64,000 nt of DNA from Microbotryomycetes sp. JL201. Taxonomy: Eukaryota; Basidiomycota; Microbotryomycetes. Each line of letters opens with the position of its first letter. The stretch's first letter is position 1. Where the stretch lies: assembly GCA_033819885.1 (NCBI GenBank), contig JAQYUZ010000044.1, positions 1-64,000 of the forward strand, written 5' to 3'. Below are positions 19,443-57,948 of this stretch, piece after piece. The notes under the pieces were generated by a model, which was not told where the DNA came from, ran no database searches, and saw nothing but the letters and a program-made list of their open reading frames with translations. Position numbers and translations under genes: made by a program.

Positions 19443-22400
19443 TCAATCGTCCTGATCATCCGGCGTGACCAACCTTCTCACGCTCGATAAACCCCTCTGT
19501 TGACCCGAAGGAATCGTCCTCGAATTGACAGACATTGATCCTTGATGGTGTTGTACGCTTTCTACGACTTTGACGGCCGAAGCAGCAGCTCTGGCAGCAG
19601 CTGCGGCGGCCGATGAACTTTCAGCGACGACTTGAGCCAACACGGCCACAGCTTGACGTTCCTTTCTTCGAAGAACGTCTTCTTCAGAATCAGACCCTAC
19701 GTCAACTTGTCCTCCCTGGTCTTGGTTGCGCGGGTCAACACCCGTTTGGAGGAAAGAGGACGGGTCGGGAACGATAGCAGCGTGGTTCGAATCACTGGAC
19801 CTGTCGTCCAACGGACCCGTCTCGCTTGATTGAGATTGGTACGTCCTTGGGTCTCTAGCGACGTCAGTCAGTTTGACGGCCGGATTGACCTCGTTACGAT
19901 GGTCTGCCGTAGAATCAATTGCAGCGCCAACGGATTCAAATTCGGAGTGCTCGACTTTTGGGGTGACGACAACATCACAGGAAGCGCCAATGTTCGTTGC
20001 AAGATCCCCGCGTTGCGTCGGATCAGTGCGTCGCCGTTTGTTATTCGAGGCTGTGGGCTGGTCGTCAAAATACGAAGTCGCAGATGAGACAGAGGGAGCT
20101 TGTCCTCGGCTTGTTTCACCATCGCGAGTCGGGACAAAGGAAGAGGTGGAAGGCGAAGCGGAAGGCAAAGGCGCCGATGATGGTGTCGTCGACGAGGGGG
20201 TTGGAAGCTGACGCGGTACGACGTTGGGTCCGCTCGAGGAGGCCGCCCTCGAGCCCGAGCGAGAGAGTGAGCGTGGAGGAGAGTCGGGCAAAGTCGTTTG
20301 AGCATACTTGCGTTTAAAGTCGGTCTATGTGCGAGAGTCAGCCTGCTTGAACAGCGATAGAATGCACAATGACGTACCAAGTATTGCTGATGGGCTGCAT
20401 ACTCTGGCGTGTGCTTGTACGCTGCCAGAGCCGCAATGTACGCCTCTTTGGCATTTGCGGCTTTTGCCTCGAGCGCCTGCGAGTAAAGCATCGTCAACCA
20501 CCCATCTGCGCATGTTCTTATCAAAGGGGAAAAGACTGACCTCGCGATCCTCCTTTGGCATCGCCTGCCACCTCTCCCCGACCGTTTTCGCAATCTCTGT
20601 AAAGCTCGCGCCTTTCATCTCTTCCCGGACAGTGTGACTGAACGCAACATAGGCAGAGACAGGTTTGACGGGAGCATGAGGATCAGGTTTTGGATGGCGC
20701 CTGTATCGTCGTTTCGTCGACTCTTGTCCCGTTGCTGTGGCGGCAGTTGCTGCTGCCGCAGCCGAAGCAGCGGCGGTAGCAGAAGCAGCATCGTTCACCG
20801 TTGCGGCCAATTTGGAAGCGGCAGACGCAGTGACCGTTGCGTCAGGAGTGAAAAATGACGTTCCCGCGATAGCGTTATGCGTCGAGTTGTGCACGACCGT
20901 AGGTGGACCGTTATCGCCAAGGTAGAATGTCGCTCTGTTGGTCTGCTGTACCGTTGTAGGCTGATGATGCTGCGTAGCTGACGATGGTGCCGTCGCCGTT
21001 ATCATGACAGGCGATTCGTCTTCTGTCATTGCGTCCCGAGTTGACAAGCTGAGAGGCACTGAAGTTGGAATGCCTGCGCGAACGTCCTCGTGTCAGGAAG
21101 CCAGATATCTTTTGCCTAAATCTAAGATACACTGACCTCTTAGCGAAGCCAATTCTCGCTGCAACATCCTACGGTGGCCGCGCCTGACGCCCAAGACTTC
21201 GAAATCTTCTTCCTGAATGTCGAACAATGACCTGCACGCCAGCCATCGAGTTAGCAAACTTGCAATCGCGCAGTTTTCCACAAGGTCTTGAGACTAACTC
21301 CATGCGGTCGAATCCGTTCTGCAAGAGCGACTAATGAGAGAGGCGAAATTCAGCTGTGTTCGAGGCGGATTGTTCCATTTCTCTGCATATACTGACATGT
21401 GTATACTCGCTCAAGCCCAACGAATGAAGCAAGTTGACGACGGCCTGCTGTTGCGAGACCGTTTGGTGCTGCGCGAGCTGGTCAACATTGGACTGCACAA
21501 CGGGAGCATACGCCGGCGATACAGGCGGTGGTGCGGTGCCGCGGTAAACCGAATCCTGCAACTGTGGCTGTTGCTGAGCATACGCATGAGACGCGGATGT
21601 TTGCGTGTAATGAGGTGGCGGATTCGGTGATGGGTATTGGTGAGACGGAAACGTCGACGGCTGCAACGGCGTTTGGTACAAGTTGTACGCATGTCTGTTG
21701 CTGCTACCTGGACTATTGGCATCGCCTTGATGAGGCATGTCATATGCTGTGTAAGTTGGTGCGTCTGCCCTTGGCGTGTACCGGCTGGTGGCAGCCGTCG
21801 AGGCGTGCGTCGCATAGGAATTTGGGTGCTGGAGGTCCGGTGCCGCCGGAGGGTAATAGGAGGTTTGTGTCGTGGTCGTCGTGACTTGGGCTGGCAGCGC
21901 TATTGGCGCGGACGGTGCCGCCAAAGTCCGTGGAGGCTCCGGCGAGTGCCCGGTTCTGATCGCAGCGTTTGTCATAGGTGGCCACTGTGTGGCAGTACTG
22001 GCGAGTGGAGGAGGATGCGAGTCATAGTCGTGATAGGGCTGATCGAGTGCATTCGGCTGACGTGCGTGGTCGATTGTGTGGTCGCCGCCGTCGCCGCTGA
22101 TGAGCGAATCTCGTCTCGCGCAACTTGCGGCCGATGTCGCTCCGCTTGACAGCCTCTGTCTCTTGGAGGAGGACGCTTGGACGTCTCTCGAGTCCGTGAT
22201 GCCGTCGTCTCGTGCGTGCGTGGTGATGCGATCTCTGTCGGCGCCGGCGTCTGGGCTCTGCCTTTGTTGCCGAGCGTGTGACGACTGCTCTGGGCCGCTG
22301 GACGGGCGAGCTCGACGTCGGTGCTCCGCAAAGGAAGAGTTGTCGCCAGCCTGTGACTCCGACAGCTGCTTTGCTGCGCGTGGTCGACGCTCGCGAGAGG

Positions 22401-26617: not shown

Positions 26618-28505
26618 ATGCGATTAACCTCGACGACTGTCCTGCTTTGCGCTTTGGCGACTACAGCCTTTGGCGAATCGACATCGCCAATTGAAGATTA
26701 TCCCTCTCCGACCCGAACGTTGCAGACTCGACAGAACGGAAAGAATCCCCCGTTCAATGTCAATAATCCTGCCCCAACTCCAGCCTTCACCATGCCCGCC
26801 CTACCCAAATTGCTCGACGTCAACCAACTAGTGAATCTGGTCGGTGCAACGACAGCTCCTGTCAATTCCCTTTTGGGTCAAGCCGCAACAAGACTGTTAC
26901 AAGATTTGACTTCTGGCTACACCAACCCAGTGGTCGGAACCGTTCAAGGTCTGATTTGTGGTTTATTTGGATGCAACGCTGCGCCACCTCCTCCTTCTGG
27001 TCGACCGAAACCCGTCCCGAGCAATGTGACGTGCCTGAACGGTACATATGACGCTGCAACAATTTCATCATTATTCTACTGTAACGCACCTCGTTCAATT
27101 CATCCTTCCGTGACCAAGCTTTGCTCATCTTGTTGCTTGTTTTCCTGATTGTCGCAGTTGGAGGAGCCAACACGATCGTGTATCTTTGTCCGAACGCGGT
27201 TCTGAACCTTGTCGACACTATTCATTTCACCGATAAGAACCAGACTCTTCAAACCGGTCCAGGTTCGGTTGACCCGTCGCAGTACGCGACCTTGCGGGTG
27301 ACGGGTCGTTCCCAAAGCACGGCTGTGTACACTGCAGCTGATGGAAGGGATGGAGCAACGCTGAGAAACGTGATTGTCGATGGCAACAGACCCAATTTGG
27401 GCTGGGGCGGCGTCGGATCGGGGCCTTTGATTCAGATGGGCGGCAACAACAAGGGACAGTTGATCGAAAACGTCAAAGCGTTCGAACCACGAGGTCCGTT
27501 CAAACTTGCACTTGCACTGGTGCTTTTCGACTTACTTGCCTTTTGCATACCAACAACAGGCTGGACGGCTTTGCATCTGATCGAGGGTTTTATGAACAGT
27601 TGCCAAGGCATGACCGTTCGCAACAATCAAATGGGCCCATCAGGGAATGCAGCTAGCGTCTCTGGACAAAAGACAAACAAGATGCGTCGAATGTCGAAAC
27701 GACAATCCGGCGGCGGCGGCAGCAGCGGTTCTGGCGTGGCAGCACAAAACGTTCCCGCTGGACAATGGGCAGATGGTATCTCACTCGCGTGCAAGGGTTC
27801 TACTGTCACTGGAAATACTGTCGTCGATGCGACGGACGTTGGTATTGTCATATTCGGTGCACCTGGGTCCAAGGTGACGGGCAACACGGTCATTTCAAGA
27901 AACAGAGTCTTGTTGGGAGGAATCAATGCGGCAGACTATTTGCCGTTCTTTGGAAGCTTCAAAGACGTCGTCGTCTCGGGAAACACGATCAGTGAGTCGC
28001 TTACATGAATCTGATCGGCCTAGTCGCTGAGTGTTTGCGCTTTGCTGTTCTCCAGACGCCGAAGGAAACGTAAGCGTAGCCTGTCTAACGCACGTGGACT
28101 CTCACTCACTCAACATTTGCGGCTCTGCAGATGATCAAGATCGGCATGACCCTTGGCACGCTCAGTTGGGGCGACTTCAACTCTACGCTCTATCGCACAA
28201 ACGGCGGCACCTTCAACGACAACACCTTTACGTCCGGCTCGACCGGTTACTTTGGTTACGGCGTTTCTGTGAACGGTCACAACGCTGCAACCGTTCGCAA
28301 CAACAAGTTCACTTCGGCCAGCTTTGGAGGCCAACCGACGGCTAGTTGCAGATTCAATCCAATGCCCGCATATGGACCTATGTACTTTAATCCGTACACG
28401 ACTCCGGGCTCAAACTTGCAGTCTCAATTCCAGAAAGCAGTCTATGATTTTGCGATCTGTCACAATCCTGGACAAGTTGCGAGGCGGGGCGTCAATGTTT
28501 ACTAG
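26618..28505 (+). CDS. Secreted right-handed beta-helix (pectin-lyase-fold) protein 1
   Basis: It starts MRLTSTTVLLCALATTAFG, a clear signal peptide, followed by a pro-region with a dibasic-like RTLQTRQ site. After the conserved NLVGATTAPVNSLLGQAATR and LICGLFGC blocks comes an intron. The beta-helix then begins (GANTIVYLCPNAVLNLVDTI), with repeated short strands (TGNTVV, TGNTVIS, SGNTI, NDNTFT, RNNKFTS). Landmarks include WTALHLIEG, WADGISLACKG, DATDVGIVIFG, LGGINAADYLP and GSTGYFGYG. The end is RGVNVY, stop 28505. A Gly/Ser insert preceded by KRQ (about 27700) is absent from its paralogue. The fold is shared by polysaccharide lyases and hydrolases and by non-catalytic virulence factors. I cannot see lyase catalytic residues, so an enzymatic role is not claimed. 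The paralogue is at 56251-57948. Confidence 0.82.
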
Positions 28506-30709: not shown

Positions 30710-32144
30710 CTAAAGCTTCGTCTGCGAGACGACAAACGAAGACGACCTATTCAAATACTCGACAGCCTCTTTGATCATGTCATCTACAATCTTCTTGGCA
30801 GGCTCAATCGTGTTGACCTCGGCGGCAACGACACCCATCAACCAAGGTCGGTTGTCGGCGTCTTCGTAACCGACAGGAATTGTGCCCTTGGACGTAAGCT
30901 CCTTGATCTCTTGCTGACGGTTCTCTTCCCAGTCCATGATGAAGGGGTTCTTCCGCACGCGCAGAGGACGACCCTGTGAGACGTAATTTTAGTTTGTTAT
31001 CACGTGAAAATTGCGCGGTTGGTGCAACTTACCGTAAAGATGATTGTGCGAATCGTGTCCGTGATGCCGGCGGAAATGACAGCCTCCTGGTGAGCCTTGG
31101 GCGCGCCAGCCTCCTCAGCGCACTGTCGAAGGATAGTCAGCACATGTCGTCTATGGGTGGTGTGACGGGCCTCACGATGAAGCGCGTGCCAACCCAAACA
31201 GCTGACGCGCCGAACGAAAGCATAGCAGCAACCGAGGCGCCAGTGTAGATACCGCCAGCAGCGACCACTTCGATCGGCTTGCCCGTCAACGGCGACTTGT
31301 GACCCTTGACAGCCTTGACGCAAGCGGGAACGAGGATCGAGGTGGGCGTGTCGCCAGTATGGCCACCGCCTTCGCCACCTTGGCAGCAGATGATGTCGAC
31401 GCCGACCGAAAGCGCCTTGGGCACGTGCTTGACGGCGCCAACCATGTTGATACAAGGAATGCCAGCCTTGTGCAGCTTTTCAACAGCCCACTTGGGAGGA
31501 ACACCAACAGCGCAAACAAAGACGGCCGCCTTTTCTTCGATGATGACATCAATCAATTCGGGCAGTTGGCCACCAGTGTAATCCTTGTTGGTCTTGCGAG
31601 CGTTGCCGCCAACCTGGGGCAGCAGCAAGTCGATGCCGAAGGGAGCGTTCTTGTCGACCAAGTCATCCTTCAGCTCCTTGATCTGTTGGCGCAAGAACTT
31701 GGGTGTATAGCCCTGCACACGTTCGCCACATGACTGTCAGCAGATCCAATGTATATCAAAGGACCCTCAACCCACCACGCCGCCTACGGTAGGCCAGAAC
31801 ACCAGGAGGTATGGGACGTAACACATTAGCAAGCTGCTCGAGTCGGCTTCAGCCCAGCCGCCACTTACCCACGACGCCGAGGCCGCCAGCATTGGTGACA
31901 GCTGCAGCTAGTTCCGGACCTGTCGAAGCAATGTCAACTCGTGTTCTGGCGTTGTGGCGCCCGACCGGAGCTGCGCTGGCCCGCAGTCTCACCTGCCGCC
32001 ACCTGCGTGGTTGCATCATATCAGTCTCGTGTACGACGTTCAACATGCATGCTCTGACTCACGTTCATTCCGGCCAAGATGATCGGATGTTTGATGCCGA
32101 ACAACTCTGTCAACGGCGTTTTAATCTGCTGAGGCGACGACATG
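30710..32144 (-). CDS. Nitronate monooxygenase (2-nitropropane dioxygenase family)
   Basis: Start at 32144: MSSPQQIKTPLTELFGIKHP, then IILAGMN, the FMN-domain opening. The next exon has AAGPELAAAVTNAGGLGVVG, also typical. The large exon (about 31718-31170) has PFGIDLLLPQVGGNARKTN, then FVCAVGVPPKWAVEKLHKAG, CCQGGEGGGHTGD with the conserved His region, VVAAGGIYTGASVAAMLSFG, and ASAVWVGTRF. A short exon gives CAEEAGAPKAHQEAVISAGI, and the last gives LRVRKNPFIMDWEENRQQEI to QTKL, stop 30710-30712. These FMN enzymes oxidise alkyl nitronates such as propionate-3-nitronate, detoxifying plant nitro compounds. Length near 350 residues and the motifs fit fungal NMO. It is probably peroxisomal or cytosolic; the QTKL end is not a clear PTS1. 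Confidence 0.88.
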
Positions 32145-40603: not shown

Positions 40604-42849
40604 TCAGCAAGTGCGGTGCATCACAAGGATGCGAGTTCGACGGACCATGACGATGCTCGGCTCGTGAATCGAGGAGCTGTTCAACGAGAACATAGGTTCA
40701 GGTCCTTGTTATTTGAGAAAAGAAAGCAAAAACGAGACCGACCTGACAGATTTGTGCGGCAAGACGACTGCGCCGTTCGTCGACACTTCGTCTTTGATCG
40801 TCACGTCGTCACCCAAGACAGTTGCTGCGCGTTGGCAACACACATGAGCGAGACTGTCCGTGACCAACATGCTGTCCTTGCGTCACGAAGGACTCACTGC
40901 CATCGAGACGAGACCACCGGCCGCAAGACGAGTTCCATCCGACGATGGAGCTCTTGATGTAGGCGTGATCTTTGATCCTCGAGTTCTGCAAAGTGCACAT
41001 GCGACTTTAGGTCAGCCTTCTCGCCTGCTCAACTTGTGCTGGTCGACCGAATTACCTCCATAATGACGCATCGTTGGAGCCTGGCGCCCTTGCCGACAGT
41101 CACGTTCGGTCCAATGACGACGTTGGGTCCGATTGAAGCAGTTGGGTCAATAGTCGCTGTCGGATGGATCAAAACGTTGCCGGTTTGGACGTAGGCATGC
41201 GTGGCCGGGGATGCGAGCTCTGGAGATTTTTGTGAAGTCTGGAACAAGAATCAAAAAGTCAACGTCGGCAACGGCAGAGCCGGGTGCGATCCCGACATAC
41301 AAGGTGAGACAGATACAAGCACGTGCCCGTCAAAAAGTCTGAATATGGAGGTCACGATCAGAAAGATTCATCGCGGGGAAAAAGCAGGCTAAAAAAGTGC
41401 ACCTTTCGGTTGACCGATATCCATCCAGAAGCCGTGCAAGTCCATGCAGTGCAATTCTCTGTCTGATGCCATGGCTGGGAAAATTTCACTCTCGATCGAT
41501 GTCGGCCGAACATCGATGCGGTCGAGGATGGCCGGGTTGAAAATGTAGATACCGGCGTTGATGCGGTTGCCTGCGCATCGCGGTCAGATGCGTCACTAGA
41601 TTAAGCCACGCAGAGGTGACAAGATGTGGACGAACCAACGAATTCTTTCGGTTTTTCGACAAAGCGGTCGATGGTCGACTCGCCAGGAACGTTGACGACG
41701 ACACCGTACTGAGCATTAGGAGCGCGGACCAGAGTCAGCTTGAGTAGGATGCATGGTGGTCAAACACACTTTTGAAGGCTCCTCGACCCTGGTGACCTGG
41801 TAATCGTAAAAGTCAGAATGAAGGTTCAAGAGCAGAGGAAAGAGACAGGCTGACCATGATAGTGCCCTCGCCGCCGTGGTTCAAATGAAAGTCTCGCAAT
41901 TCTTGGAAGGGATATCTGTTGCAAGAGGTCAGAAGACAGGCTCTGCCGAAAACAAGGTGACTGCCAGTGCAGCGACGCGTCGACGCACGTGCAGGTCACG
42001 TCCGAGTTGAGCACAAAGAACGGCGCGTCGTCCTTGCCTAGAATGTTTCGAGCAAGAGCCAAAGGGCCGGCTGAGAAGCGCAGGAGCGTTGAGAACTGTG
42101 CAAAGTCGCTCAAAAGTTGTCCGTCTCACCTGTGCCGAGCGGTTCGGTCTCTACGCTGAACGTAATCTGGAAATACGCCAATGAGCCAATTTGAATGCAG
42201 GTCGTCATAGAGCGAGAATGAGGAACCCACCGTGATGCCGAATTGCTCTTCGAGCTTGCTCAGCTCTTTTGCCATGACTTCTGGCCTGTAGTTGACGGCC
42301 AGGACGACATGTTTGACGCCGGCCTGCATGTAAGAGTACAAGAGTCAGAATGCGCATGCGATACGAATTTGCTCGTGTCGGGTTACGGACCTTGACGAGA
42401 GCTTCAATGTGATGTTGCAGCATGGGCTGTTTATCGCGCGCGTTTCCGCGTGTCAGTCTGTCATGTCCGCGGACTCGAGATTGGATGGCCGAGGGATGCT
42501 CGCCTTGTTTGCCTGTGTGCAAGAGGCAAGACGAGACGGGTGTTTCTGGTGAGCGTGGTAAGCAGGGTCGAGGACAAGTGCACGACTGACAAACGGGACG
42601 AGCGGCTTTGGCAGCGTGAGTGTCAATGGGCGCAATCGCGTACCAAACCCTCTGTCACCAACGATTGTTCGGATCAGCGACAGTGTAAACATTGGGCACG
42701 CGCAGGCACCGAACGTGCGCGGCGCGTCTCGTCTCGTCTCGTCTCGTGTTGCATTTGCGGCGCGCAATCAAAAATGCCGCTGGTCCGGATGCTCACCCAA
42801 CGAGGATCATGGCCTTGAGCTCGGTTGACTTGGGGACGTAGGGTGCCAT
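40604..42849 (-). CDS. PSA1: Mannose-1-phosphate guanylyltransferase (GDP-mannose pyrophosphorylase)
   Basis: It starts [18 protein letters not shown] at 42849. Exon 1 (42849-42797) joins at 42651 to give [20 protein letters not shown], the nucleotidyltransferase signature loop. Later exons read [104 protein letters not shown] and [10 protein letters not shown]. The C-terminal left-handed beta-helix has hexad repeats ([40 protein letters not shown]). The last exon ends [21 protein letters not shown], stop 40604-40606, a little longer than usual. The cytosolic enzyme makes GDP-mannose from GTP and mannose-1-phosphate for glycosylation, GPI anchors and cell-wall mannans. It is usually essential. 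Confidence 0.93.
42726..42745 (+). repeat. GTCTC pentamer microsatellite in first intron of the GDP-mannose pyrophosphorylase gene
   Basis: Four tandem GTCTC units lie inside intron 42652-42796. They are short and probably neutral. Confidence 0.8.
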
Positions 42850-43831
42850 GGCTGCAAAGACGTGTGACAAGGCAACGGACGCGTGTTCCGTCGTTTCGGG
42901 AAAACACAGCGGACTGCGCAGCACAACCCGCCGGGTGCCGCACGCCGATTTTCTGAAAGGCGGTGGCTGGCACGCATCGAGTGACAACACAGATCTGTAC
43001 TGGATACCGTCACATGTACGGTCCCCTTGCTCTTTTTTAACCCCGTTTGTCATGGGCCATCCACGCTCGCTCTCTCGCCGCCCAGTGTCGTCATCGCAGC
43101 GTGATCGACGCGGCAAGCATGGCAGCATGTGCAGCACTTGTCGGTGGATGCAGTTGAGAGAATCGGGCTCAATATAGTCGAACCTGCTCATTCCTGCTAA
43201 TTCCAATCAATAATAAGCAAAGGATAACCCTTCGAATTCTCGATCGAATCGCTCGCCGCAGCGTGAGCCAGTTTGTTCACGCTTCGCGCAACAGGACTCG
43301 GTGTCGACCCAAAGAGTGACGAGTGTCACCGCAGACTGACGAGGTGAGCGAGCCAAACAGTGTGCATGCCAAGGCAGAGCGAACCCGAGAGAGAGCGCGA
43401 AGGCGCGCTCGAAGGAACGATCGGCTCAAGGCTGGGCGATCCTCGATCGCGTCAACTAGCAGTACACGGCAGGATGACTTGGCACATCGCTATCGTTGCA
43501 TTCGATCGTGATACTCGGCGGGTCGCAGCGTGCTTTCACAGCGTACTACGCTCGCACACAAAGCACCACAACACGCCGCGCACAAGCATGCCAGCAACCA
43601 TGCAAAGTGCAGCACGGACGCACGTGCACACGGTGCATCCACACTCGTCATCAACGTCCTTGCAACAGCCTACACGAGTCTTGTTTGCCCTTGACCCATG
43701 CCGAGGGGTTCGACCGCCCGCACGAAAATATCAAACTGCATCTGTTCAATTCGCTGACACTCGCGTTTCACTTGGATCATTGCAACCGCAACACTAGACC
43801 TGCCGCAGCTGGCCGCTCTGCGCGTCCAACC
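42850..43831. promoter_or_regulatory. Divergent intergenic region between the GDP-mannose pyrophosphorylase and phytochrome-like genes
   Basis: About 980 bases with no supported gene. It must carry promoters for both neighbours. The frame of phytochrome-like gene 1 stays open upstream of its chosen ATG to 43496, but that stretch is His/Cys/Arg-rich and unlike the protein. Confidence 0.45.
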
Positions 43832-46800
43832 ATGGCAGGCTCACACCCGCCACGGCCGTCGCTCAATCCGCGCTCAATCACCACCGGCTCTCACTCGCCC
43901 TCACCCGCCTCGTCCGCGTCTTCAGGAGACACGACGCCGGCAGCCATAGATGGAGCGGCACCTGTACCTCAACGGCATTCCAGCTTGTCCGAAGGTTCGA
44001 GCAAGCACCGACAGCAGCCCTCGCTCGGCGCCACTCCGGCAGAGATTAAACGGCATTTTGTCGCCACCGGCAACGAACGCGTATTCCCTATGCGCAACGT
44101 CGGTCAGTGTGCCATTCCCTGCGCGTGTCTTGTTCATCGCCTGACTTGGTCTCTCTTGCCAGTCCAAGCAAGACCGTCCACATCTCGCACCAAAACAACA
44201 CTTGGCAACCCGATCTTGGCTCCCTCATCTCCACAGCAACCCCAGGCATCGACATCACACTCGATTGAGCAGACCTTGGGTCGCTCACCGTCCAAGAGGC
44301 CGACCCTGTCATTTGGCGGACCACTCACGACCGGCGTGGCAACAAGCGCCACCGGCACACTGTCTTCGCCTTCTCACACACTCGGCAATCCGTTCGCAAC
44401 GTCCTTTCAAAACGCCATGTCTTCAAATGGCACCTTGTCGGACGGCACACGCTCTCCCGGCTCGTCTCATCCGGCCACGACACCCGGGATTCCAGACTTG
44501 GACGCCGGCTTCAGTCCAAAAATGGCACGAAGACAGAGTACGGCAGGTTGGTTCGGCAGCCAAAGTTCTGGCAAAGGCAAGCAACCTGCCGTCGAACGAG
44601 AGTCGATCAGGGTCGTTTTGCCCGACGGTCACGCGTACTGGAAGCTGTCTCGCGAACCGCCCATCGAAGAAGAGGCGCAGCACAAACCTGGATGCATCCA
44701 AAGCTTTGGCGTGCTCGTTGCTTTGGAAGAGGACGACGGAGGCAACTTTGTTGTGCAGCAAGTGTCTGCGGTTCGTCAAACGTTCTTTCCGTCTTTGCTT
44801 CGTCATATACCCGGCTGATTTTCGCTTGTTTACGACAGAACTCGGATGAAATTATCGGTCTCTCGCCGTCGACATTATTTGAAGCGACGTCCTTTACCGT
44901 TTTCCTGACACCCGACTCGACAGACGTGTTTCTAGACGCTGTCGATGCGCTCGAGGATACAGACCCGCCGTCTGACGCGTCCGATGACAACGACTCTGCG
45001 CCTTCAGAGAATCGGCAACCTCAAACACCCACGCTCCCGCATCCAGAACACTTCCGGCTGACGTTTGCCAACCCAACCGACTCGCCGCCGGCGGCACGCA
45101 TGTCGTTTGCAAACCGTCGCAAGGACAGCGTTGGTGAAACCGGACTGCAAGTATACGCTTCACTTCATCGACCTGATCCCGTCAAGCAACCGAATCGAAC
45201 ATTGCTCGAGCTCGAGCTTGTCGATGATACACGCAACCCGTTACGGACCGATCGACGACTGGTGTCGCCAGAGGAACTCGACAAGGACAGACGTTTGCAC
45301 GATGGAGGATACGTCAACGACGAAGGCGACCACGATCGTTCGGGTTCGGCAACCAGCGGCATGGACTCTACGGCCGAAGAAATTTACCGAAGCACGGTCA
45401 GCTTGATGAAACCCATCAGAGCTTTGAATCGCAAACGAGCTCGACGAGACTCTGAGATCAACATGGTTCAACTCGTCTTTCAAATCGAAGAGCAATTGCG
45501 CAAAGCCAAAGGACTTGAAACGTTCCTGTCCGTCACGGCCGGCATCTTTAAAGAATTGACGGGTTTCGATCGAGCCATGGTCATGCAGTTTGATGAGACT
45601 TGGCATGCCAGGGTTGTGGCTGAGCAAGTTGATCGAGTCAGGACAAGGGACTTGTACCTCGACTTGACGTTTCCAGCTTCGGACGTTGCTTCGGCTAGTT
45701 TTGCGACGACGAAACTGAACATTTTATACAATCGAGATGCTGAGCGGATACCCATGCTCGCAAGGTCAAAGGAAGAGGCGGAGAAACCGATAGACATGAC
45801 GAGGTGCATGTTGCGCGCGCTGCCGAAACAGAGAACAGAGTGAGATGGTTTCTTTTTGCTTGGTCTTGCCCACTCGGGTCGATTACTGACGTGTTCTCGT
45901 GGGTGTACGCGCGTGCAGTTACCTGGAAAAGATGGACATCCGCGCAACCATGACCGTGTCGCTGTTTGCGTTTGGCAAACTTTGGGGCATCGTTCAAATG
46001 TCGTCGCATGGACTTGTCGGCCATCGCGTATCGGTCCCGATCCGTAACCTGTGCTCATACCTCGGCGAGTCTCTCAGTCGAACGATCGAGCGACTATCGT
46101 ACGAACGACGACTTCAAGCCCGACGAATCATCAACACGAGCGCCTCGACTGAAAACCCATCCGGCACGTTCATCACGTCCGGCGACGAGTTGTTGACCTT
46201 GTTTGGAGCCGATTTCGGTTGTCTGAGCGTCGGTGAAGAAGCGAAAATTTTGGGAGACGTGTCGAACGCTCAAGAACTTTTGGCCGTGTTGGAATACTTG
46301 CGAGCTCAAGCGTTTACGACGATTCAAATGAGTCAGGAGATTTCAGTCGATTTCCCTGATTGTAGGGCACCCGATCCGAGCGGGTTTCAACAGATTGCAG
46401 GCTTGCTGTTGATTCCACTCAGTCCGACCGGGGCAGATTTTATCGTGTTTGTGCGCAAAGGTCAACCGCAGGAGGTCAGGTGGGCTGGAAGTCGGTCCGG
46501 AGAGGTCGGGGGTACCAGTGACTCGCATACGATTCGGACGGACGACCGTAAAGGTTTTCAAGTTTACCGTCAAGTGTCCTCTGGCAAAGCTCGGCCTTGG
46601 AACGACGAAGTGGCCGAAACAGCAGAAGTCTTGGGCGTTATTTACTCGAGGTTCATCAACGTTTGGAGGGAGAAGGAGCATGCCGTTCAAGCAAATACCG
46701 TCACTTCACTGTTGCTAGCGAACGCGTCTCATGAAGTCAGAACGCCTTTGAACGCCATCGTCAACTTTTTGGAAATGGCTTTGGACGCTTCAACGGACGG

Positions 46801-48695
46801 TGCTGTCAATGAAAACTTGAAACGGACCCATGACGCCAGCAAATCACTCGTTCACGTGATTAACGATTTATTGGATTTGACTCGACAAGAATCGGGTGGC
46901 GAATTGTTTATTCAAGAGCCGTTCGAGTTGAGAGGTACGATCGATGACGCTATCAGCATTCAAAGAGAAGAAGCGAGACGCAAGGGTATCAACCTTGATG
47001 TGATTGAAGAACCACCTGGCACGCCGAGCGTCTTGATTGGAGATCGGTCCAAGATTCGTCAGATCATTGCGACGAGCGTCGGTAACGCAGTCAAATATAC
47101 GGACAAGGGCTCAGTTGTCATCAAGTATGGCGAGCACAGGCCGACATTGTCGACGATCGACTCGGACGTGAAGGGTCAAATCATGCCGGCCGTGCTCGAC
47201 TATTCGAAGAATGCGACAACCAAGCGTAGCAGCCAGGCTGGGCAGTCTGCCATCATCTCTTCGAATCCAGCAGGTTTGTCTGATGGCGCAGTGCACCTGT
47301 ACATTTCCATGCAAGTCGCAATGTCGAGGAGTCTTGTCCGCGCACACACACACGCTGACCTGCGAGTTCCGCATTTTCAGAACTGATACAGGAGTTGGTA
47401 TCGCCGACGACAAGCTGGAAGCTTTGTTTGCCGCGCTGCACCACGTCAAGAAAGCCTCGACTCAGGCGACGGCGCCGATCGGTCTCGGTTTGGCCGTGTC
47501 TGCGAGGCTGATCGAGAACCTTGGTGGCGTCATGAGCGTCGAATCTCAGGTCGGCAAAGGGTCCAACTTTACGTTTGTCATACCTTTTGCTGTACCCGAT
47601 GGAACCGCATCGCCGAGTAGTTCAACGACCCGGCCTGCACTCGTTAGACGCTCGAGTTCGCATTCGACGGGAAGTAGAACTAGTTTGACGAGCAAAGACA
47701 GCAAACATTCCGAGCTCGACAACTTGATATCGGCCATGACATCTTCACACATTGATGCTCGACCTGCCGTCCGGAGCAATTCGAGCAGCGGCGGCGTCAG
47801 TGGCAAAGTTCGTCGGCCACTGTCGGGCGTTGCCAGCGAGAACAACGGAGGGTTGTCTCGACCATCGAGCATATATCTTGGTAGCGTGGGCTTGTCATCA
47901 CCACCGCCGATCGTGTCTCCCGGAACGCCAGCTTCGGCATCTCTAGTCGACCCGCCGACGTTGCCGCCCGTACCAAGACACCGAGACAGGGAACAGGTCG
48001 CTCCCACTGTGCCCGCGTCTCTTCCCGAGAAACGACAATCATTCCACATTCTCGTCGTCGAAGACGAAAAGATCAATCGAGTTTTGCTGGAAAGGCGACT
48101 GGTCAAGGACGGACACGCTGTTACCGTTGTCGAGCACGGTGGCTTGGCCGTTCGAGCTATGGAAGAGAATCCGACTGCGTTTGATTTGATTCTGATGGAT
48201 CTCAAGTGAGTTGGCGTGTGCGGACTCGCTTACGATCTCGTTGACGAACGGGTCTGTCTCTGCTTGAACGTATAGTATGCCGATTTGCGATGGATACGAA
48301 GCTTCACGCATTATTCGTCAATCTGAAGCGAAATATATCATACCTCCGGGCTTGTCCCGACCGCCTTCTCATTTGCTCAACGGAGGCGTTCCGATCATTG
48401 CCGTCTCTGCCAACATTCACGAGCGTAATCGCAAGCAGTTGACTTCGTGCGGTATCGGTGAGTGCCCCAGTTGTCCTTTGCCGTGGCCCGTCGGGTGTTT
48501 AGGGGGGGTTTTGACACGTTCGGTCATGTTGCTTCAGACGCGTGGTCTTTGAAACCGGTCAGGTTCAACCGATTGCAAGAGATTATGAAAGGCGCGGTCG
48601 ATCCTACACAGCGTCGTCGTGATTTGTACAGACCAGGGGAATGGGAACAAGGCGGTTGGTTGACGATGCGGTCGGATGGCAAACTGGCCGGTTGA
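43832..48695 (+). CDS. Phytochrome-like hybrid histidine kinase 1, with degenerate chromophore pocket
   Basis: About 1480 residues over seven exons, start MAGSHPPRPSLNPRSITTGS. A disordered N-terminus precedes PAS (HKPGCIQSFGVLVALEEDDG), GAF (VMQFDETWHARVVAEQVDRV) and PHY (WAGSRSGEVGG) regions. Next come HisKA with intact H-box ASHEVRTPLNAIVN, HATPase (GNAVKYTDKGSV; TDTGVGIADDKLE; GLGLAVSARLIENLGG) and a receiver (VVEDEKINR; LILMDL; SLKP). The C-terminal LYRPGEWEQGGW motif matches its paralogue. Oddly, the biliverdin-binding Cys context RCEDEPI is replaced by LSREPPIEEEAQ; PATDIP is PASDVA; SPIHIKYL is PKQRTDYL, losing the chromophore-contacting His; and the PHY tongue PRKSF is DRKGF. Kinase and receiver look functional. 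It may not bind bilin, or may use the nearby Cys in PGCIQ. The paralogue lies directly downstream in the same orientation. Confidence 0.88.
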
Positions 48696-49211: not shown

Positions 49212-52200
49212 ATGCCGCCCCAAGAGGAGCGCCAGGAGGACGGCGTAAGCGACAGTGCGGGCGATGCGCGCTCGCCGTTTACCCGGCGACCGTCAGTCTC
49301 CATGACGACGCGCATCTACCCCGTCAGGTCAGTTCTGGTCCCTTTAAACCAGCAAAGACAGGCAACTGCAGCTATCGATGTCAACGGTGGCGCCGAGCAG
49401 CGAGAGAACGACGACCAGTCACCGCCGCCGACGCCGAGCGACGACTCGTCTACGAAACCAAAGAGCTTGGATCCGTACTTGGACAGACCGACAACGCACC
49501 AAAAGTACAGCGACCAAGAGATGACGGAGCGAGAGCAGGCCAGGAAACAGAAGCAGCAGCAGCAGCAGCAGCAGACTCAGGACGCCAACACTTCATCATC
49601 AGTCACATCGGGTGACGTGCTGTTCAGCATGACGTCCAGGTTTGAACATGTCGTCGGCGACGATGGCCAGCACCTCGTCGTCACCGGCAGGGACGGCAAC
49701 TTTGTCAGATGCGAAGACGAAGTGCGTTGAATCTCGTTCGGACCTTTTGATTCGCACGCTCGGGACTGATTCATTCTTGACGTACACACAGCCCATTCGC
49801 ACGCCTCAGGCCGTCCAAGCGTTTGGCGTCCTTGTCGCGTTGGACCAAGAAGACGACGGCAGGTTCGTCGTCCAGCAAGTGTCTGAAAACTCTGGCTTTG
49901 TGCTCGGCATCCCGCCAACGGCATTATTCAAAGTCAAGAGCTTCAGTCACGTCTTGAGCGACGCAGAAGCCGACGTACTGGCCGACGCAGTCGACATGCT
50001 CGACGAGCGAGACGAAGACCCAGATGATGACGAAGTTGGACCGGTGTACTTTGAACTGGTAGGACAAGGCTTGCCAGGCTCGGATCCGAACGATACAAGT
50101 CCAGACAACCAAAACAGGCTGCAGTGGCAGGCCCACTGCGCCTTGCACAGACCCGATCGTCAAAACCAACCCCGCCGTCTGATCCTCGAACTTGAACTGA
50201 TGGACGACCAGATCAACCCGTTGTCGACCGAGGACGTAGAAGCGATCCCTTTCGACGAAAGGGGAGGTATGCAGTACCATGGCAACGTCAACCCGACCGA
50301 AGAAGACTTGGCGGCGTCAACCATCTCGATGGTCAAGCCGTTGCGAGCCTTGACGAGATCCCGCAACCGTCGAAGTCAACGAAAAAAGCAATCGTCAGAC
50401 ACGGACGTTGTCGGTTTGTTGAGCCAGATCAACGAGCAGCTTGGCAAGGCGACCGACCTTGCCTCGTTCATGAAGCTCGTCGCCAGCATCTTTGCCGAAT
50501 TGACCCAGTTCACTCGATGCATGGTATATCAATTTGATGAGGACTGGAACGGCAAAGTCGTCGCCGAGCAAGTCGACTACTCCCGCACCAAGGATTTGTA
50601 CCGTGGCCTGAATTTCCCCGCGACAGACATTCCGGCGCAAGCTCGTGAATTGTACAGGATAAACAAAGTTAGGCTTTTATACGATAGGGACCAACCGACG
50701 GCTCGCATGTGCTGCCGCTCAAAACGAGAAGTTGACCAACCTCTCGACATGACTCACTGTTTGTTGCGCGCCATGTCGCCTATTCATATCAAGTCAGTCT
50801 GAATGAAGTTTCGTGCACATTTGCATCCTGCTGACAGTATGCTATTCAGATATCTCGCCAACATGGGCGTCAGATCGTCCATGTCCGTCTCGGTGACTGC
50901 TTTCGGTGGCCTATGGGGTCTGATCGCCATGCACACCTACGGCAAATACGGACAGCGCATTTCGTTCCCTCTCCGACAACTTGCGAAATTGCTCGGCGAC
51001 TCTATCAGTCGCAACATTGAGCGCTTGTCGTATGCTCAACGATTGAACGCTCGCAAGTTGATCAACACGGAACCGACAGAAGCGAACCCGACTGGTTTCA
51101 TCGTCGCAAAGTCTGAAGATCTGTTGACACTCTTTGACGCGGATTTCGGCGTGCTCAGTATCGGTGACGAAGCAAAGATCATGGGCTCTGTTCAAAACTC
51201 GCAGGAAGTGCTGGCGCTTATCGAGTTTTTGAGGGTCAAGCCTTTCAAGTGAATTGTCGTTACTTTCGACGAGATGATCATGTGCTGACGACTGTTGTGC
51301 AGGACGCTTGAGGCTACCCAAGACATTCGACGAGATTGGACAGAGCTCAACTTTACAGCAACGTTCGAGACTGTAGCAGGGGCCCTCGTCATACCGTCAG
51401 TCCATTCTTAACTCTCTTTTCTGAGCTTTGCGCTGACAACCTCTTGCATGGCAGGCTTTCGGCCGAAGGCAAAGACTTTATCGTGTTTTTCCGCAAAGGT
51501 CAAGAGCAAGAGGTCCGTTGGGCGGGCAACCCTTATTCGAAAGAAGAAGATTTGAAACCGCTCGAGCCTCGAAAGAGTTTCAAGACGTGGACCGAAAAGA
51601 TTGTAGGACGTTGTCGAGCTTGGAAGGACGAGGAGTTGGAGACTGCTTCGTCAGTTCAGGTCGTTTACGGCAAATTCATAGTCAGTCTGCGCGCGCGCGA
51701 GAGAGAGGTTACCTGAGAGAGAGCTGTGACTGATACGGAGACCGCGTCAGGCCGTCTGGAGGGAAAAACGGTCAGCTCTTGCGGCCAACCAACTAAATCA
51801 AATTCTGCTGTCGAACGCCAGTCACGAAGTCAGGACCCCGCTCAACGCCATTGTCAACTATCTCGAGCTTGCACTCGACAGCGAAATTCCGTCAGATGTT
51901 CGCGACAGCATCTCGAGGTCTCACGCCGCGTCAAAATCGCTCATCCACGTCATCAACGACTTGCTGGTCAGTCTACTGGTCCTAGCTAAGGCATTTGTAC
52001 AAATACTGATTCGTCGTATTGCAGGACTTGACACGAGCCGAACAAGGCCAAACCTTATTCCTGCAAGAGCCGTTCAATTTTCCGGAAACCCTGCACGAAG
52101 CGCTCGAAGTTCACAAAGCCGAAGCCAAACGACAAGGTCTGTCTCTTGAAGTGATCGAGTCACCTACAGGTACACCACCTGTCGTTCTCGGTGACAGGGC

Positions 52201-54225
52201 AAAGATTCGAATCATCGTCTTGAGGGTTGTAGAGAATGCTTTGAAGCACACGCACAGCGGTGGCATCCTGGTCGAATGGGGAGAGACGAGCATTGGTGCG
52301 GACCAGAGTGAAAGTCGAGAGAAACGTGACGACGAAATCAGGATATCTATCTCAATGTAAGTGTGATACGGCGCCGCATTCGATCTTTGCAGGGATTGAC
52401 ATTTCCGATTTTTTTGGCCAGCACCGACACGGGTTCAGGCATTTCGGAAGAAAAGCTCGAGAGCATCTTTCGCGAATTTGAACAAGTCAGCACGTCGGAC
52501 GAGTCGCAGCCAGAAAAGGAACAAGGCAGCGTCGTCGGACTTGGTTTGGCCGTCGTTGCTCGTATCGTTCGAACGCTGGGCGGACAATTACGAGTCGAGT
52601 CAAAGGTTGGCGAAGGCTCAAAGTTTACGATCATCTTGCCGTTCAAGTTGCCTTCGGAGGAAGACATGCGGAGCACGTCTGCTAGGAGTGTCATTTCGAG
52701 TGGATCGGCCTCCTCGTCCAGTTCGCGGTCTCTAAGGCCGTCTGCTCAGCGAACGATCAGCTCGCTTGGAAGGAGATCTAGAGGCAGCGGATCGACGAGC
52801 GGCGAGTCCGAGATCGATTCGTTGATTGCGGAAATGTCGTCAACATTGCAGCCCGCTGCACCACGCAGTCACTCCACCACTTCTCATACGTCATCGAGGA
52901 GGTCAAACGGCAGCAAGTCCATGTCTTCCCATTCGGGATCTGCTGCACGACAACTCGACTCGAGAAGGTCGGCTGGCGCGGTGACTAAATCATCCAGCGC
53001 GGGTCGGTCAGGCGGATCAAGGCAGACCATGTCAGGCGGTCAAGGAACAGAAGCGGTCGTTACGACTCGAGATCGCCAAGGCTCACTCAACGTGAAAGAC
53101 TCGGGGTACCCGCTCAAACCAGTCAAGATGACCCAGTTTGACCTCTCTGGCTCGCCCGACAATGAGGGTTCTGGTATGGCGACACCTCGTGTCAATCCGG
53201 CGTCGAGTCCGAGGCTGAACGGGCCTGACGGATCTGGTGAGAAGCAAGAACCCTCGACGTCAGCTTTGGCGCCCGTCAACCAAGACGACGTCGAAGTGCG
53301 AGACTTTGAGCACGAGCCGGCGCAACAGCAGGTGCACAACAGCGACAAGAATCACACCAAGTCTAGCAGCAAAGGTGCTCGATCATCAAAGTCGGGATCA
53401 AGCTGGAGTCGAAGGAGTCAGCCCAAGGTTATCACGTCTGATGAAGAACGACCGAGGTCGCCGCACAGTGACGAGGAACAGTCGTGGTCTTTGCGGCCTA
53501 TGCGCGTGCTCGTCGTCGAAGTCAGTCCCGGCTATTTGAGCCTATGCATCATTCACTGACACACGATTTGAAACCGCAGGACGACCGGATTAACCGCATG
53601 ATTCTGCAGCAACGGCTCCGTATCGACGGCCACAAAGTCACGCTCGCTGAGCATGGTCGCGAGGCCGTGCGAATCATGGAGGATAGGTTTGACGAGTTTG
53701 ACATTGTTTTGATGGACCTTCTGATGCCCGTGAGTCATGTCTTGTTCCTGTACCGAGCTCGGTGGATGGTAACAAGCTTTGCGACGGCCTCGCTTGTGCC
53801 AGATTATGGGTGGCCTCGAAGCGACATCGGCTATTCGTGACATTGAAGCCAAGCGGCAAGTCGACGGTGGTGACAGCGTGCCTGAGACGGTTCGCTTCAA
53901 CGGCCGGATTCCTGTGCTAGCCGTCACGGCATCCTTGCCGGAGCGGGAGAAACAGACTATCATTGACGCTGGTCTCGGTAAGCGTAGTCGATCTCAATAT
54001 TTTGATGAATGTGAGCTGACGTATACGCTTGATGCAGACGGCTGGATGCTCAAGCCACTAGATATTCATCGGTTGCGAGTTCTCATGAAGGGATCTGTTG
54101 ACGCCAACGCTCGCGCTGCGAACCTGTATCAGTGCGTTCATATGTTTGAGCCTTTGTTGTGACATGCTGACGTTGCACGTGTCTGTAGACCCGGTCAATG
54201 GGAAGCTGGAGGTTGGATCCATTGA
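49212..54225 (+). CDS. Phytochrome, fungal hybrid histidine kinase 2 (canonical)
   Basis: It starts MPPQEERQEDGVSDSAGDAR. A CAG-encoded poly-Gln (49553-49573) lies in the disordered N-terminus. Exon 1 ends GNFVRCEDE and joins PIRTPQAVQAFGVLVALDQE; this supplies the biliverdin-binding Cys in its usual place. GAF has GKVVAEQVDYSRTKDLYRGL, FPATDIPAQARELY, and SPIHIK joining YLANMGVRSSMSVSV, with the conserved His. PHY has WAGNPYSKEE and the tongue EPRKSF. HisKA (ASHEVRTPLNAIVNYLELAL), HATPase (VENALKHTHSGGI; TDTGSGISEEKLE; GLGLAVVARIVRTLGG), a long Ser-rich linker and the receiver (RVLVVE, DDRINRMILQQRLRIDGHKV, VLMDLLMP, GWMLKPLD) follow. It ends PGQWEAGGWIH, stop 54223-54225. Fungal phytochromes are red/far-red and temperature sensors feeding HOG/SakA-type phosphorelays. 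Around ten introns. It appears fully functional. Confidence 0.92.
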
Positions 54226-56250: not shown

Positions 56251-57948
56251 TCATTGCGTATTAACATTCGGTTTGGTCACTGGCCCTGGTCCTCTGCAGA
56301 TGACGAAGTCAAATGCGCCACCTGCGACCCATGAACCTGTGAGTGAAGCGCCCGGCGTCGTGTATTGGTTATAGTACAACGGTCCAACATCTGGCAATCC
56401 TGCGTGACATGACCCAGTTTGGATACCTCCGAACGCAGCGTTTTGGAACCGATTGTTTGCGACAATTCCATTGTTGTGACCTGCCATGGCCATACCGTAT
56501 CCAAAGTAGCCGGTTCCACTTGACGTGAACGTGTTGTCAGACCATTGACCATCAAACGTTCGCGTATTGTTGACGTCGGACCAGGCGAGAGGGCCAATCG
56601 CGATACCAACTTTCATCATGGCACCCTTTGTCATCAAAACATTGTTTTGTACGCGCGTATTGGTGTACGTCCCACCGTACGGAAGGTAGTCTACGCTGTT
56701 GATGCCACCGAGCAGTTGACGTTGCTGAGTGACGATCGTGTTGCTTTCGACAGTCGAACCTGGTGACTGGAACACGACAATCGCACCGTCGGTAGCATCA
56801 ACGATGGTGTTGCGTGCAACGTAAGAATTGCGGCAGGCAAGCGAGATGCCATCCGCCCTGTCGACATAAAATTAGTTCGAGCATTGGGCGCGTCAGCCAT
56901 GATCGGCCCGAGCTCACCAAAGGCCGCCGGGGCAAGGACCGTTAGGATTGAACTGGTCTTGAGGCGTGCAGGAAGTGTCAGTTCCGCTGAGAAAAGGTGC
57001 AGATCGAGTTAGCTTGGGCACGGAACAAGATGACGCTTCTCCTCTTTGATTTACGCTGGGCCAAATTGTGAGTCGGTGATGACAGCACCAGTACACGACA
57101 GCTGGTTCCCCTCAATCATGTGCAATGTCGACCAAGCTCTCGGTTCGAACGCAATGACGCGGTCAACGACTTGGCCAGTATTGGTTCCGCCCATTTCCAT
57201 CAAGGCCAATCCTCCAGACAAGTAACCAAGCGCAGGTCTGTTGCCATCAACTTTTATTTGAGAGACTTTGGCATAGTCTCGTCCGGGGTCGACCGTAAAG
57301 ATGGCGCACGCTTGGTTCGGATTGACGGTTCGAACGGTGGCATAGTTGTCGCTCGACAGGGCCTCGAGCGCGCTCAAACGAGTAGTCAGGGTCTGGTTCG
57401 GAGCAGTGAACTGGATAGGAGCTGAAAGACTGAGGACCGCTCTGGGGCAGAGGAACACTGTCGTGTTGGCGCCACCGTCTGACCATCGCATTCCCCATCA
57501 GCAGCTTGTTTGCTCCACTACAGTCAAACAGCTACTCACATGAGAATAGCGAATTGATTTGCTGCTCCGTGTACGACGAGTTGAGGCATGTTGGCAGCGT
57601 CGGCGGATTGGGGACGGGCACTGGAGGACACGAGCCAAACAAGCCGCACAACGGTGTGCCTCCGGTAATTGATCCGAGCAGTCCTGTCGTCGTCTTGAGC
57701 AAATTGGCTAGAGCAGTCGCAAGCGTCGAAGTCAAAGAACCTGTTGTTGCGCCGACAAGAATAGCAATTTGGGAAAGTGGCAAGATTATGGCGTCCGCAG
57801 GTGGCACGAATGATGGAGTCGGACCAGGGTTGGCGACATTGTAAGGAAGCACGCTAGACGCCCGTTTCTCGGTCCTCGTAGGCACGTCCTGGGTTGGAGC
57901 AGCCAAGGCCAGAGGGGCCAGCAGAAGGATCAGCAGAATGAAGCGCAT
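56251..57948 (-). CDS. Secreted right-handed beta-helix (pectin-lyase-fold) protein 2
   Basis: It starts MRFILLILLLAPLALA at 57948, a signal peptide, followed by a pro-segment with a Kex2-like EKR-A site (TRTEKRASS). Conserved blocks shared with gene 1 include ILVGATTGSLTSTLATALAN, LCGLFGSC, GGANTTVFLCPRAVLSLSAP, WSTLHMIEGNQLSCTGAVIT, DATDGAIVVF, LGGINSVDYLPYGGTYTNTR and SGTGYFGYGMAMAGHNNG. It ends VTKPNVNTQ, stop at 56251. Five or six exons. It lacks the Gly/Ser-rich insert of gene 1. It is secreted to wall or medium; the substrate is unknown and catalytic residues cannot be assigned. Its position, orientation and association with repeat B mirror gene 1 and repeat A. Confidence 0.82.

What the first reader, a model, noticed from the sequence alone, without database searches (positions are those of the whole stretch)
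44600..45960. Upstream phytochrome seems to have lost its bilin pocket but not its kinase
Gene 2 has RCEDEPI (bilin Cys), PATDIP, SPIH and PRKSF. Gene 1 has LSREPPIEEEAQ, PASDVA, PKQRTDYL and DRKGF at the matching places. H-box, N-box, G-box and receiver Asp/Lys are all retained. This suggests a light-blind or redox/thermal signalling partner, or one using the Cys at PGCIQSFG for a different linkage. A pseudo-phytochrome maintained beside a true one would be a novel two-component arrangement.
Basis: partly seen in the sequence, partly recalled or inferred. Interest (0 to 1): 0.82.

Follow-up and report, generated by a model that had tools for sequence, protein, structure and literature searches.

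The report
Light-blind twin of fungal phytochrome
In what looks like a fungus, a red-light sensor gene sits beside an old copy of itself that has lost many of the parts needed to hold the light-absorbing pigment but has kept its signalling enzyme parts, so the copy probably signals without seeing light.

Summary
Two head-to-tail phytochrome-type hybrid histidine kinase genes (gene 1: 43832-48695; gene 2: 49212-54225) share three introns at identical position and phase. At 17 pocket and tongue sites gene 2 matches the canonical residue 17 times, gene 1 five times; 25 of 29 bacterial proteins chosen by PHY domain alone match 15 or more. Lost in gene 1: bilin Cys, Tyr176, Pro of DIP, Arg213, Arg222, SPIH with His260, His290, P and S of PRxSF (DrBphP numbers, recalled). 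No alternative exon was found. The loss concentrates in GAF: gene 1's GAF branch is 2.5-3.4 times gene 2's, kinase branches are about equal. H-box, N-box, G-boxes and receiver Asp/Lys remain. Best reading: a maintained, light-blind pseudo-phytochrome that kept its phosphorelay output, possibly pairing with gene 2 (DHp identity 69% against CA 45%, the most extreme of 36 pairs). Redox, thermal or alternative-Cys roles are untested. Not unprecedented: 3 of 4 degenerate bacterial phytochromes found here share a genome with a canonical one. No tandem fungal case appeared in the titles and abstract openings listed by ten paper searches. Species unidentified. New variant of a known kind.

The parts
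43832..48695 (+). Gene 1, pseudo-phytochrome hybrid histidine kinase; exons 43832-44102, 44163-44770, 44839-45839, 45919-47322, 47381-48205, 48276-48457, 48538-48695; 1482 aa (1502 aa if the first, in-frame intron is retained)
   Evidence: GT-AG introns of 58-80 bases; Pfam PAS_2, PHY, HisKA, HATPase_c, Response_reg, no GAF match (run on the 1502-aa version). No transcript evidence.
44645..44680 (+). Former bilin-Cys site of gene 1, LSREPPIEEEAQ: no Cys (Ser in my ungapped reading, a gap in the alignment, Ile), 5-residue insertion behind PI
44687..44710 (+). PGCIQSFG, the only Cys of gene 1 before the GAF domain (Cys268 of the 1482-aa model)
   Evidence: 1 of 80 aligned phytochromes has Cys in this column
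45574..45597 (+). AMVMQFDE: Tyr176 replaced by Met
45673..45738 (+). PASDVASAS...KLNILYNRD: Asp207 kept; Ile and Pro of DIP changed, Arg213 region deleted (3 residues), Arg222 to Asn
45817..45934 (+). ALPKQRTDYLEKM (spliced over 45840-45918): SPIH replaced by PKQR, His260 to Arg; Tyr263 and Met267 kept
45983..46012 (+). WGIVQMSSHG: His290 to Ser in the ungapped reading and in the alignment (the alignment opened a gap to pair a His)
46544..46558 (+). DRKGF, PHY-tongue PRxSF with Pro and Ser lost, Arg and Phe kept
46721..47498 (+). Kinase core of gene 1: H-box NASHEVRTPLNAI 46721-46759, N-box VGNAVKYT 47078-47101, G1 DTGVGI 47385-47402, G2 GLGLAV 47481-47498
48054..48560 (+). Receiver domain of gene 1: VVEDEKIN 48054-48077, phospho-acceptor Asp in LMDLNMP 48192-48282 (spliced), Lys in WSLKPV 48543-48560
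49212..54225 (+). Gene 2, canonical phytochrome hybrid histidine kinase, 12 exons, 1443 aa
   Evidence: Pfam PAS_2, GAF, PHY, HisKA, HATPase_c, Response_reg
49707..49806 (+). RCEDEPIRTP, bilin Cys167 of gene 2, intron 49722-49791 directly after RCEDE
50617..50655 (+). PATDIPAQARELY of gene 2, intact DIP motif
50770..50865 (+). AMSPIHIKYLANM of gene 2, intact SPIH/His260, intron at the same position and phase as in gene 1
51567..51581 (+). PRKSF tongue motif of gene 2

Best explanation
Gene 1 is a maintained paralogue of gene 2 whose photosensory module no longer takes up biliverdin, so it is light-blind, while its histidine kinase and receiver still work and feed the same histidine-phosphotransfer relay as the true phytochrome. 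Shown: loss of pocket residues, retention of kinase/receiver residues, GAF acceleration, shared descent, open frame. Inferred: no bilin, no photochemistry, working kinase. Most likely mechanism (inferred, about 0.4 on its own): the two proteins pair through their well-conserved DHp helices, gene 1 acting as a fixed, light-insensitive subunit that sets or dampens the light-dependent kinase output of gene 2, or supplies dark activity. The core claim, light-blind and kinase-competent, I hold at about 0.85.
For: Pocket 5 of 17 against 17 of 17; 15 of 20 conserved pocket columns lost against 14 of 47 others; GAF columns conserved in at least 90% of 80 phytochromes and kept only by gene 2: 22, only by gene 1: 2, p=3.6e-5; gene1/gene2 branch ratio GAF 3.4 (IQ-TREE) or 2.5 with bootstrap 5-95% 1.3-6.5 (FastTree), kinase 0.83 or 0.90, 0.48-2.3; lineage changes GAF 28 against 8, p=0.0012, kinase 12 against 14 and 9 against 8; three identical intron positions and phases; third positions of conserved A, G, P, T, V codons largely changed (GAF 21 of 23, HK 33 of 47) with the frame open over 1482 codons; DHp 69% against CA 45% identity, ratio 1.54, highest of 36 kinase pairs; four bacterial pairs of similar CA identity have 0.98-1.05. 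Phytochromes are dimers and mixed dimers occur among plant phytochromes (passages of PMC10813442); bacterial and fungal phytochromes can act in darkness (passages of PMC8117939).
Against: No expression or binding data. The DHp excess could reflect a shared phosphotransfer or regulator contact instead of dimerisation; no fungal outgroup was available to show whether it is general in fungal phytochromes. Asp207, Arg254, Tyr263, Met267 and Arg466 remain, so a residual ligand site is possible. Kinase outgroups are few (3, 7), the 90% interval of the GAF ratio overlaps that of the kinase, the PAS and PHY tests are not significant, and comparing all 26 listed pocket sites with the rest of GAF gives only p=0.09.
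Confidence: 0.5

Rival explanations
1. Gene 1 is light-blind but works alone as a homodimer whose remodelled GAF pocket senses another signal (small ligand, redox state or temperature).
For: The GAF domain evolved fast while the kinase did not and its frame stayed open, as expected for a new ligand site; some pocket residues are kept (Asp207, Arg254, Tyr263). Temperature roles are described for ordinary phytochromes (passages of PMC10056346 and PMC8117939).
Against: I identified no ligand motif or redox Cys pair, but made no search beyond listing Cys positions; no orthologues were available to see whether the new pocket is itself conserved. Relaxed constraint would look the same in one sequence.
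Confidence: 0.33
2. Gene 1 is still a photoreceptor, binding a bilin non-covalently or through the Cys of PGCIQSFG.
For: Asp207, Arg254, Tyr263, Met267 and tongue Arg are kept; a Cys is present 15 residues downstream of the old site.
Against: His260, Tyr176, His290, Arg222, Ser257 and Arg213 are all lost, plus a 5-residue insertion and a 3-residue deletion. L036 has a Cys in that column beside its normal bilin Cys.
Confidence: 0.1
3. Gene 1 is a decaying relic or a wrong gene model, with a missing exon restoring the pocket.
For: No transcripts seen; the gene model was built by hand.
Against: Open frame, consensus splice sites, three shared introns, about equal kinase branch lengths, mostly changed synonymous sites, and no candidate exon in 42000-45000 or in the 45840-45918 intron.
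Confidence: 0.05

Closest known systems
Fungal phytochromes, group VIII hybrid histidine kinases (Aspergillus FphA, Ustilago Phy1)
   Same: PAS-GAF-PHY-HisKA-HATPase_c-receiver order; kinase and receiver residues; gene 2 matches at all sites tested.
   Different: Gene 1 lacks the bilin Cys and most tested pocket sites. Basidiomycete phytochromes are described as one subgroup, the second fungal lineage having been lost there (passages of PMC4422448); one phytochrome is named for U. maydis (passages of PMC4831468). Whether this organism is a basidiomycete is not shown.
Physarum polycephalum PhyA and PhyB
   Same: Two hybrid-kinase phytochromes in one eukaryote outside the plants, 33.8% identical (passages of PMC4758236).
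   Different: Both are reported to share the N-terminal bilin Cys; no degenerate partner. It also shows that this domain order is not confined to fungi.
RpBphP4 of Rhodopseudomonas palustris, light-to-redox bacteriophytochrome (recalled, not read)
   Same: Loss of bilin attachment with retained kinase, in a genome that has true phytochromes (recalled).
   Different: Bacterial; redox sensing shown there (recalled), untested here; gene 1 has lost more than the Cys.
Degenerate bacterial phytochromes found here: L094, L111, L097, L092
   Same: 7, 8, 12 and 8 of 17 sites kept; L111 and L097 keep HisKA and HATPase_c; L094, L111 and L097 lie in genomes with a canonical phytochrome.
   Different: No head-to-tail tandem pair; L094 has a GGDEF-EAL output and lies about 12 kb from canonical L096; all four are 16-18% identical to gene 1 over aligned positions; L092 has no HATPase_c match and a HisKA match below the cut-off.
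Heterodimeric rhodopsin-cyclases of chytrids (NeoR with RGC1/RGC2) and WC-1/WC-2
   Same: Paired fungal photoreceptor systems whose two subunits differ in photochemistry, or one of which cannot sense light by itself (passages of PMC8815786, and PMC10056346).
   Different: Unrelated sensor domains; pairing of gene 1 and gene 2 is only inferred.

Membership tests
Fungal phytochrome (group VIII hybrid histidine kinase), gene 1 | PAS_2-GAF-PHY-HisKA-HATPase_c-receiver architecture | tested here: met
   five of six domains by Pfam; GAF not detected by Pfam at E 0.001, but aligned to gene 2 at 93 of 190 identical positions.
[quoted passage not shown]
   no Cys in the site; no alternative exon found.
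Fungal phytochrome (group VIII hybrid histidine kinase), gene 1 | Pocket residues DIP, SPIH, His290 and tongue PRxSF | tested here: not met
   5 of 17 sites kept.
Fungal phytochrome (group VIII hybrid histidine kinase), gene 1 | Red/far-red photoconversion | not testable with these tools
   Needs protein.
Fungal phytochrome (group VIII hybrid histidine kinase), gene 2 | Architecture, bilin Cys, pocket and tongue motifs | tested here: met
   Six Pfam domains; 17 of 17 sites, gene 2 itself being the reference for the canonical letters, which 15 of 29 bacterial proteins share completely.
Hybrid histidine kinase, gene 1 | H-box His, N-box Asn, G-boxes, receiver Asp and Lys | tested here: met
   The F-box is altered (LFAAL against IFREF in gene 2).
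Light-blind phytochrome of RpBphP4 type | Loss of bilin attachment with kinase retained | tested here: met
   at sequence level; the comparison protein itself was not fetched and its features are recalled.
Light-blind phytochrome of RpBphP4 type | Redox-controlled kinase activity | not testable with these tools
   Needs protein.

The most novel reading that the evidence does not exclude
A tandem pair in which a light-blind pseudo-phytochrome is a dedicated heterodimer partner of a true phytochrome, turning a symmetric photoreceptor dimer into an asymmetric one whose single bilin-bearing subunit is read against a fixed reference subunit: a two-gene light receptor with one seeing and one blind half.
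Probability: 0.25. Interest if true: 0.75.

Novelty: new variant of a known kind. Interest (0 to 1): 0.5.

Why it matters
Phytochromes in fungi and bacteria also act in darkness (PMC8117939 passages), and what a phytochrome does without light is poorly understood. A natural pair that separates the light-sensing pocket from the kinase, side by side in one genome, gives a ready comparison for the light-independent signalling role, and, if the proteins pair, for asymmetric signalling in a phytochrome dimer.

Tried and rejected
Searched the + strand of 42000-45000 in three frames for an alternative bilin-Cys exon and the 45840-45918 intron for SPIH: none. The pattern CCNWSNCCNATHCA returned nothing and says nothing, because it asks for a Pro before SPIH that gene 2 does not have. 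The 80 phytochromes aligned (79 from bacterial genomes, plus L081 from a viral contig) were found with patterns that include Tyr176 or His260, so their 80 of 80 at those two sites is partly circular; one of 81 candidate proteins (by its length L072) fell out before alignment, and L082 was left out. The scan itself kept the best 80 of 561. The PHY-only control (all 29 matches counted) was made for this reason; it includes the genomes of L010 and L007, already in the first set. Codon-usage scoring for other genes was too weak to use. No whole genome is held for the window; no Rfam match, tRNA or tandem array was found in it, so the species stays unknown. Twenty other open frames of the window scanned with Pfam showed no heme oxygenase; the remaining smaller frames were not scanned. 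Conserved-column tests could not be made for DHp and CA, where no column reached 90% in the bacterial set.

Full report
What is there. The window holds genes with short GT-AG introns; no whole genome is held for it. Two head-to-tail genes on the + strand, 516 bases apart, encode phytochrome-type hybrid histidine kinases. Gene 1 runs 43832-48695 (7 exons, 1482 aa; 1502 aa if the in-frame 60-base intron 44103-44162 is kept), gene 2 runs 49212-54225 (12 exons, 1443 aa). Pfam finds PAS_2, PHY, HisKA, HATPase_c and Response_reg in both and GAF only in gene 2. Against the Protein Data Bank both photosensory modules match bacteriophytochromes, gene 2 far better (best E 1.5e-58 against 6.3e-35). That the organism is a fungus is inferred from domain order, serine-rich linkers and introns; the same domain order is reported from the slime mould Physarum (passages of PMC4758236), so this is not certain, and the species is unknown.

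The two genes are paralogues. Three introns sit at the same alignment column and phase (gene 1 aa 627, 1095, 1431; gene 2 aa 504, 926, 1401), of 6 in gene 1 and 11 in gene 2. Identity is 40-50% in PAS, GAF, PHY, kinase and receiver, and in codons for conserved A, G, P, T, V most third positions differ (GAF 21 of 23, HK 33 of 47, PHY 19 of 26, PAS 17 of 26, REC 14 of 21), so the duplication is old. In the bacterial trees the two form a clade of their own for each of the four parts tested; fungal outgroups were not available.

Gene 1 lost the pocket. In an alignment with 80 phytochromes (79 from bacterial genomes, one from a viral contig) gene 1 departs at the bilin Cys (Cys in 78 of 80), Tyr176 (80 of 80), Pro209 (80), Arg213 (80, deleted in gene 1), Arg222 (80), Ser257 (79), Pro258 (78), His260 (80), Pro465 (79) and Ser468 (79), while Asp207, Arg254, Tyr263, Met267, Arg466 and Phe469 are kept. 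Numbers and the contact list follow DrBphP from recall. The patterns that found these loci include Tyr176 or His260, so I made a second control: PHY-domain proteins picked by PF00360 alone in 142 genomes of one class and 148 of one phylum (12 and 11 genomes with matches; 29 proteins, all counted). Of 29, 15 keep 17 of 17 sites, 6 keep 16, 4 keep 15, and 4 keep 12, 8, 8 and 7. Gene 2, the reference for the letters, has 17; gene 1 keeps 5. I listed the 17 sites, which favours a low score for gene 1; the spread among the 29 does not depend on gene 1.

The loss is uneven. Counting columns conserved in at least 90% of the 80, the GAF domain has 22 kept only by gene 2 and 2 only by gene 1 (p=3.6e-5), PAS 3 against 1 and PHY 4 against 2, neither significant; among conserved columns shared with gene 2, pocket columns are lost more often (15 of 20) than others (14 of 47), p=0.001. 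Comparing all 26 listed pocket sites with the rest of GAF, without regard to conservation, is not significant (18 of 26 against 88 of 173 differing, p=0.09). Tree branches from the common node are 0.90 and 0.27 in GAF, 0.56 and 0.36 in PHY, 0.59 and 0.38 in PAS, 0.36 and 0.44 in the kinase, with 27, 27, 27 and 3 outgroups; lineage changes are 28 against 8 (p=0.0012), 11 against 5 (p=0.21), 4 against 6 (p=0.75) and 12 against 14 (p=0.85) (IQ-TREE). FastTree with 100 column bootstraps gives ratios of 2.5 (5-95% 1.3-6.5) for GAF, 1.5 (0.65-3.4) for PHY and 0.90 (0.48-2.3) for the kinase with 7 outgroups (which stopped before PAS). The kinase shows no sign of relaxation relative to gene 2, and its H-, N- and G-boxes and the receiver Asp and Lys are present; its F-box is altered.

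How it most likely works. A phytochrome that cannot hold a bilin cannot switch with light. With kinase and receiver kept, gene 1 should still pass phosphate to the histidine-phosphotransfer protein that fungal phytochromes use (YpdA and the HOG pathway in A. nidulans; passages of PMC10056346). Two readings remain open: partner of gene 2, or separate sensor. I lean to the partner reading because the dimerisation and phosphotransfer domain DHp is 69% identical between the two while the adjoining CA domain is 45%; the ratio of 1.54 is the highest of 36 pairs (next 1.38), and the four bacterial pairs of similar CA identity (0.46-0.54) have ratios of 0.98-1.05. This could equally reflect a shared binding partner: in A. 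nidulans, LreB binds the C-terminal kinase-receiver part of FphA and VeA a part of the kinase (passages of PMC10813442).

What is known. Fungal phytochromes are group VIII hybrid kinases (passages of PMC4965123); some fungi have more than one (Monilinia laxa three, table passage of PMC7827745; further cases in passages of PMC4422448), and PMC4422448 places basidiomycete sequences in one subgroup. So the arrangement is not new in kind. None of the titles and abstract openings listed by ten paper searches names a fungal phytochrome that has lost its bilin site; the library holds only open-licence papers, lists were capped, and of the ten papers opened I read only matching passages.

Changes made on checking: facts and wording only; the odds stand.

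Noticed in passing
47709-47747 (gene 1) and 52807-52845 (gene 2): A short alike island in the otherwise divergent serine-rich linker between ATPase and receiver: SELDNLISAMTSS and SEIDSLIAEMSST; possible docking or export motif.
   Followed up: no
L094 and L096 (genome G039, contig C92): A bacterial contig carries a canonical phytochrome kinase and, about 12 kb away, a degenerate PHY-GGDEF-EAL protein that keeps 7 of 17 pocket and tongue sites; a bacterial parallel of the pair studied here.
   Followed up: partly
L111 with L108 (G147), L097 with L088 (G044): Degenerate phytochrome kinases with HisKA and HATPase_c matches in genomes that also have a canonical phytochrome.
   Followed up: partly
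49545-49574: Glutamine-rich tract near the N-terminus of gene 2.
   Followed up: no
27085-28005 (+) and 56254-56871 (-): Two open frames with right-handed beta-helix (Beta_helix) matches on either side of the phytochrome pair, the first below and the second above the Pfam cut-off.
   Followed up: no
20328-21092 (-) and 31143-31727 (-): Open frames with an HMG box and a nitronate monooxygenase domain.
   Followed up: no
44675-44680 and 49722-49791: Gene 2 has an intron directly after RCEDE; my model of gene 1 has none there but an extra EEEAQ ending in an acceptor-like gcgcag, perhaps a trace of intron loss at the former Cys site.
   Followed up: no
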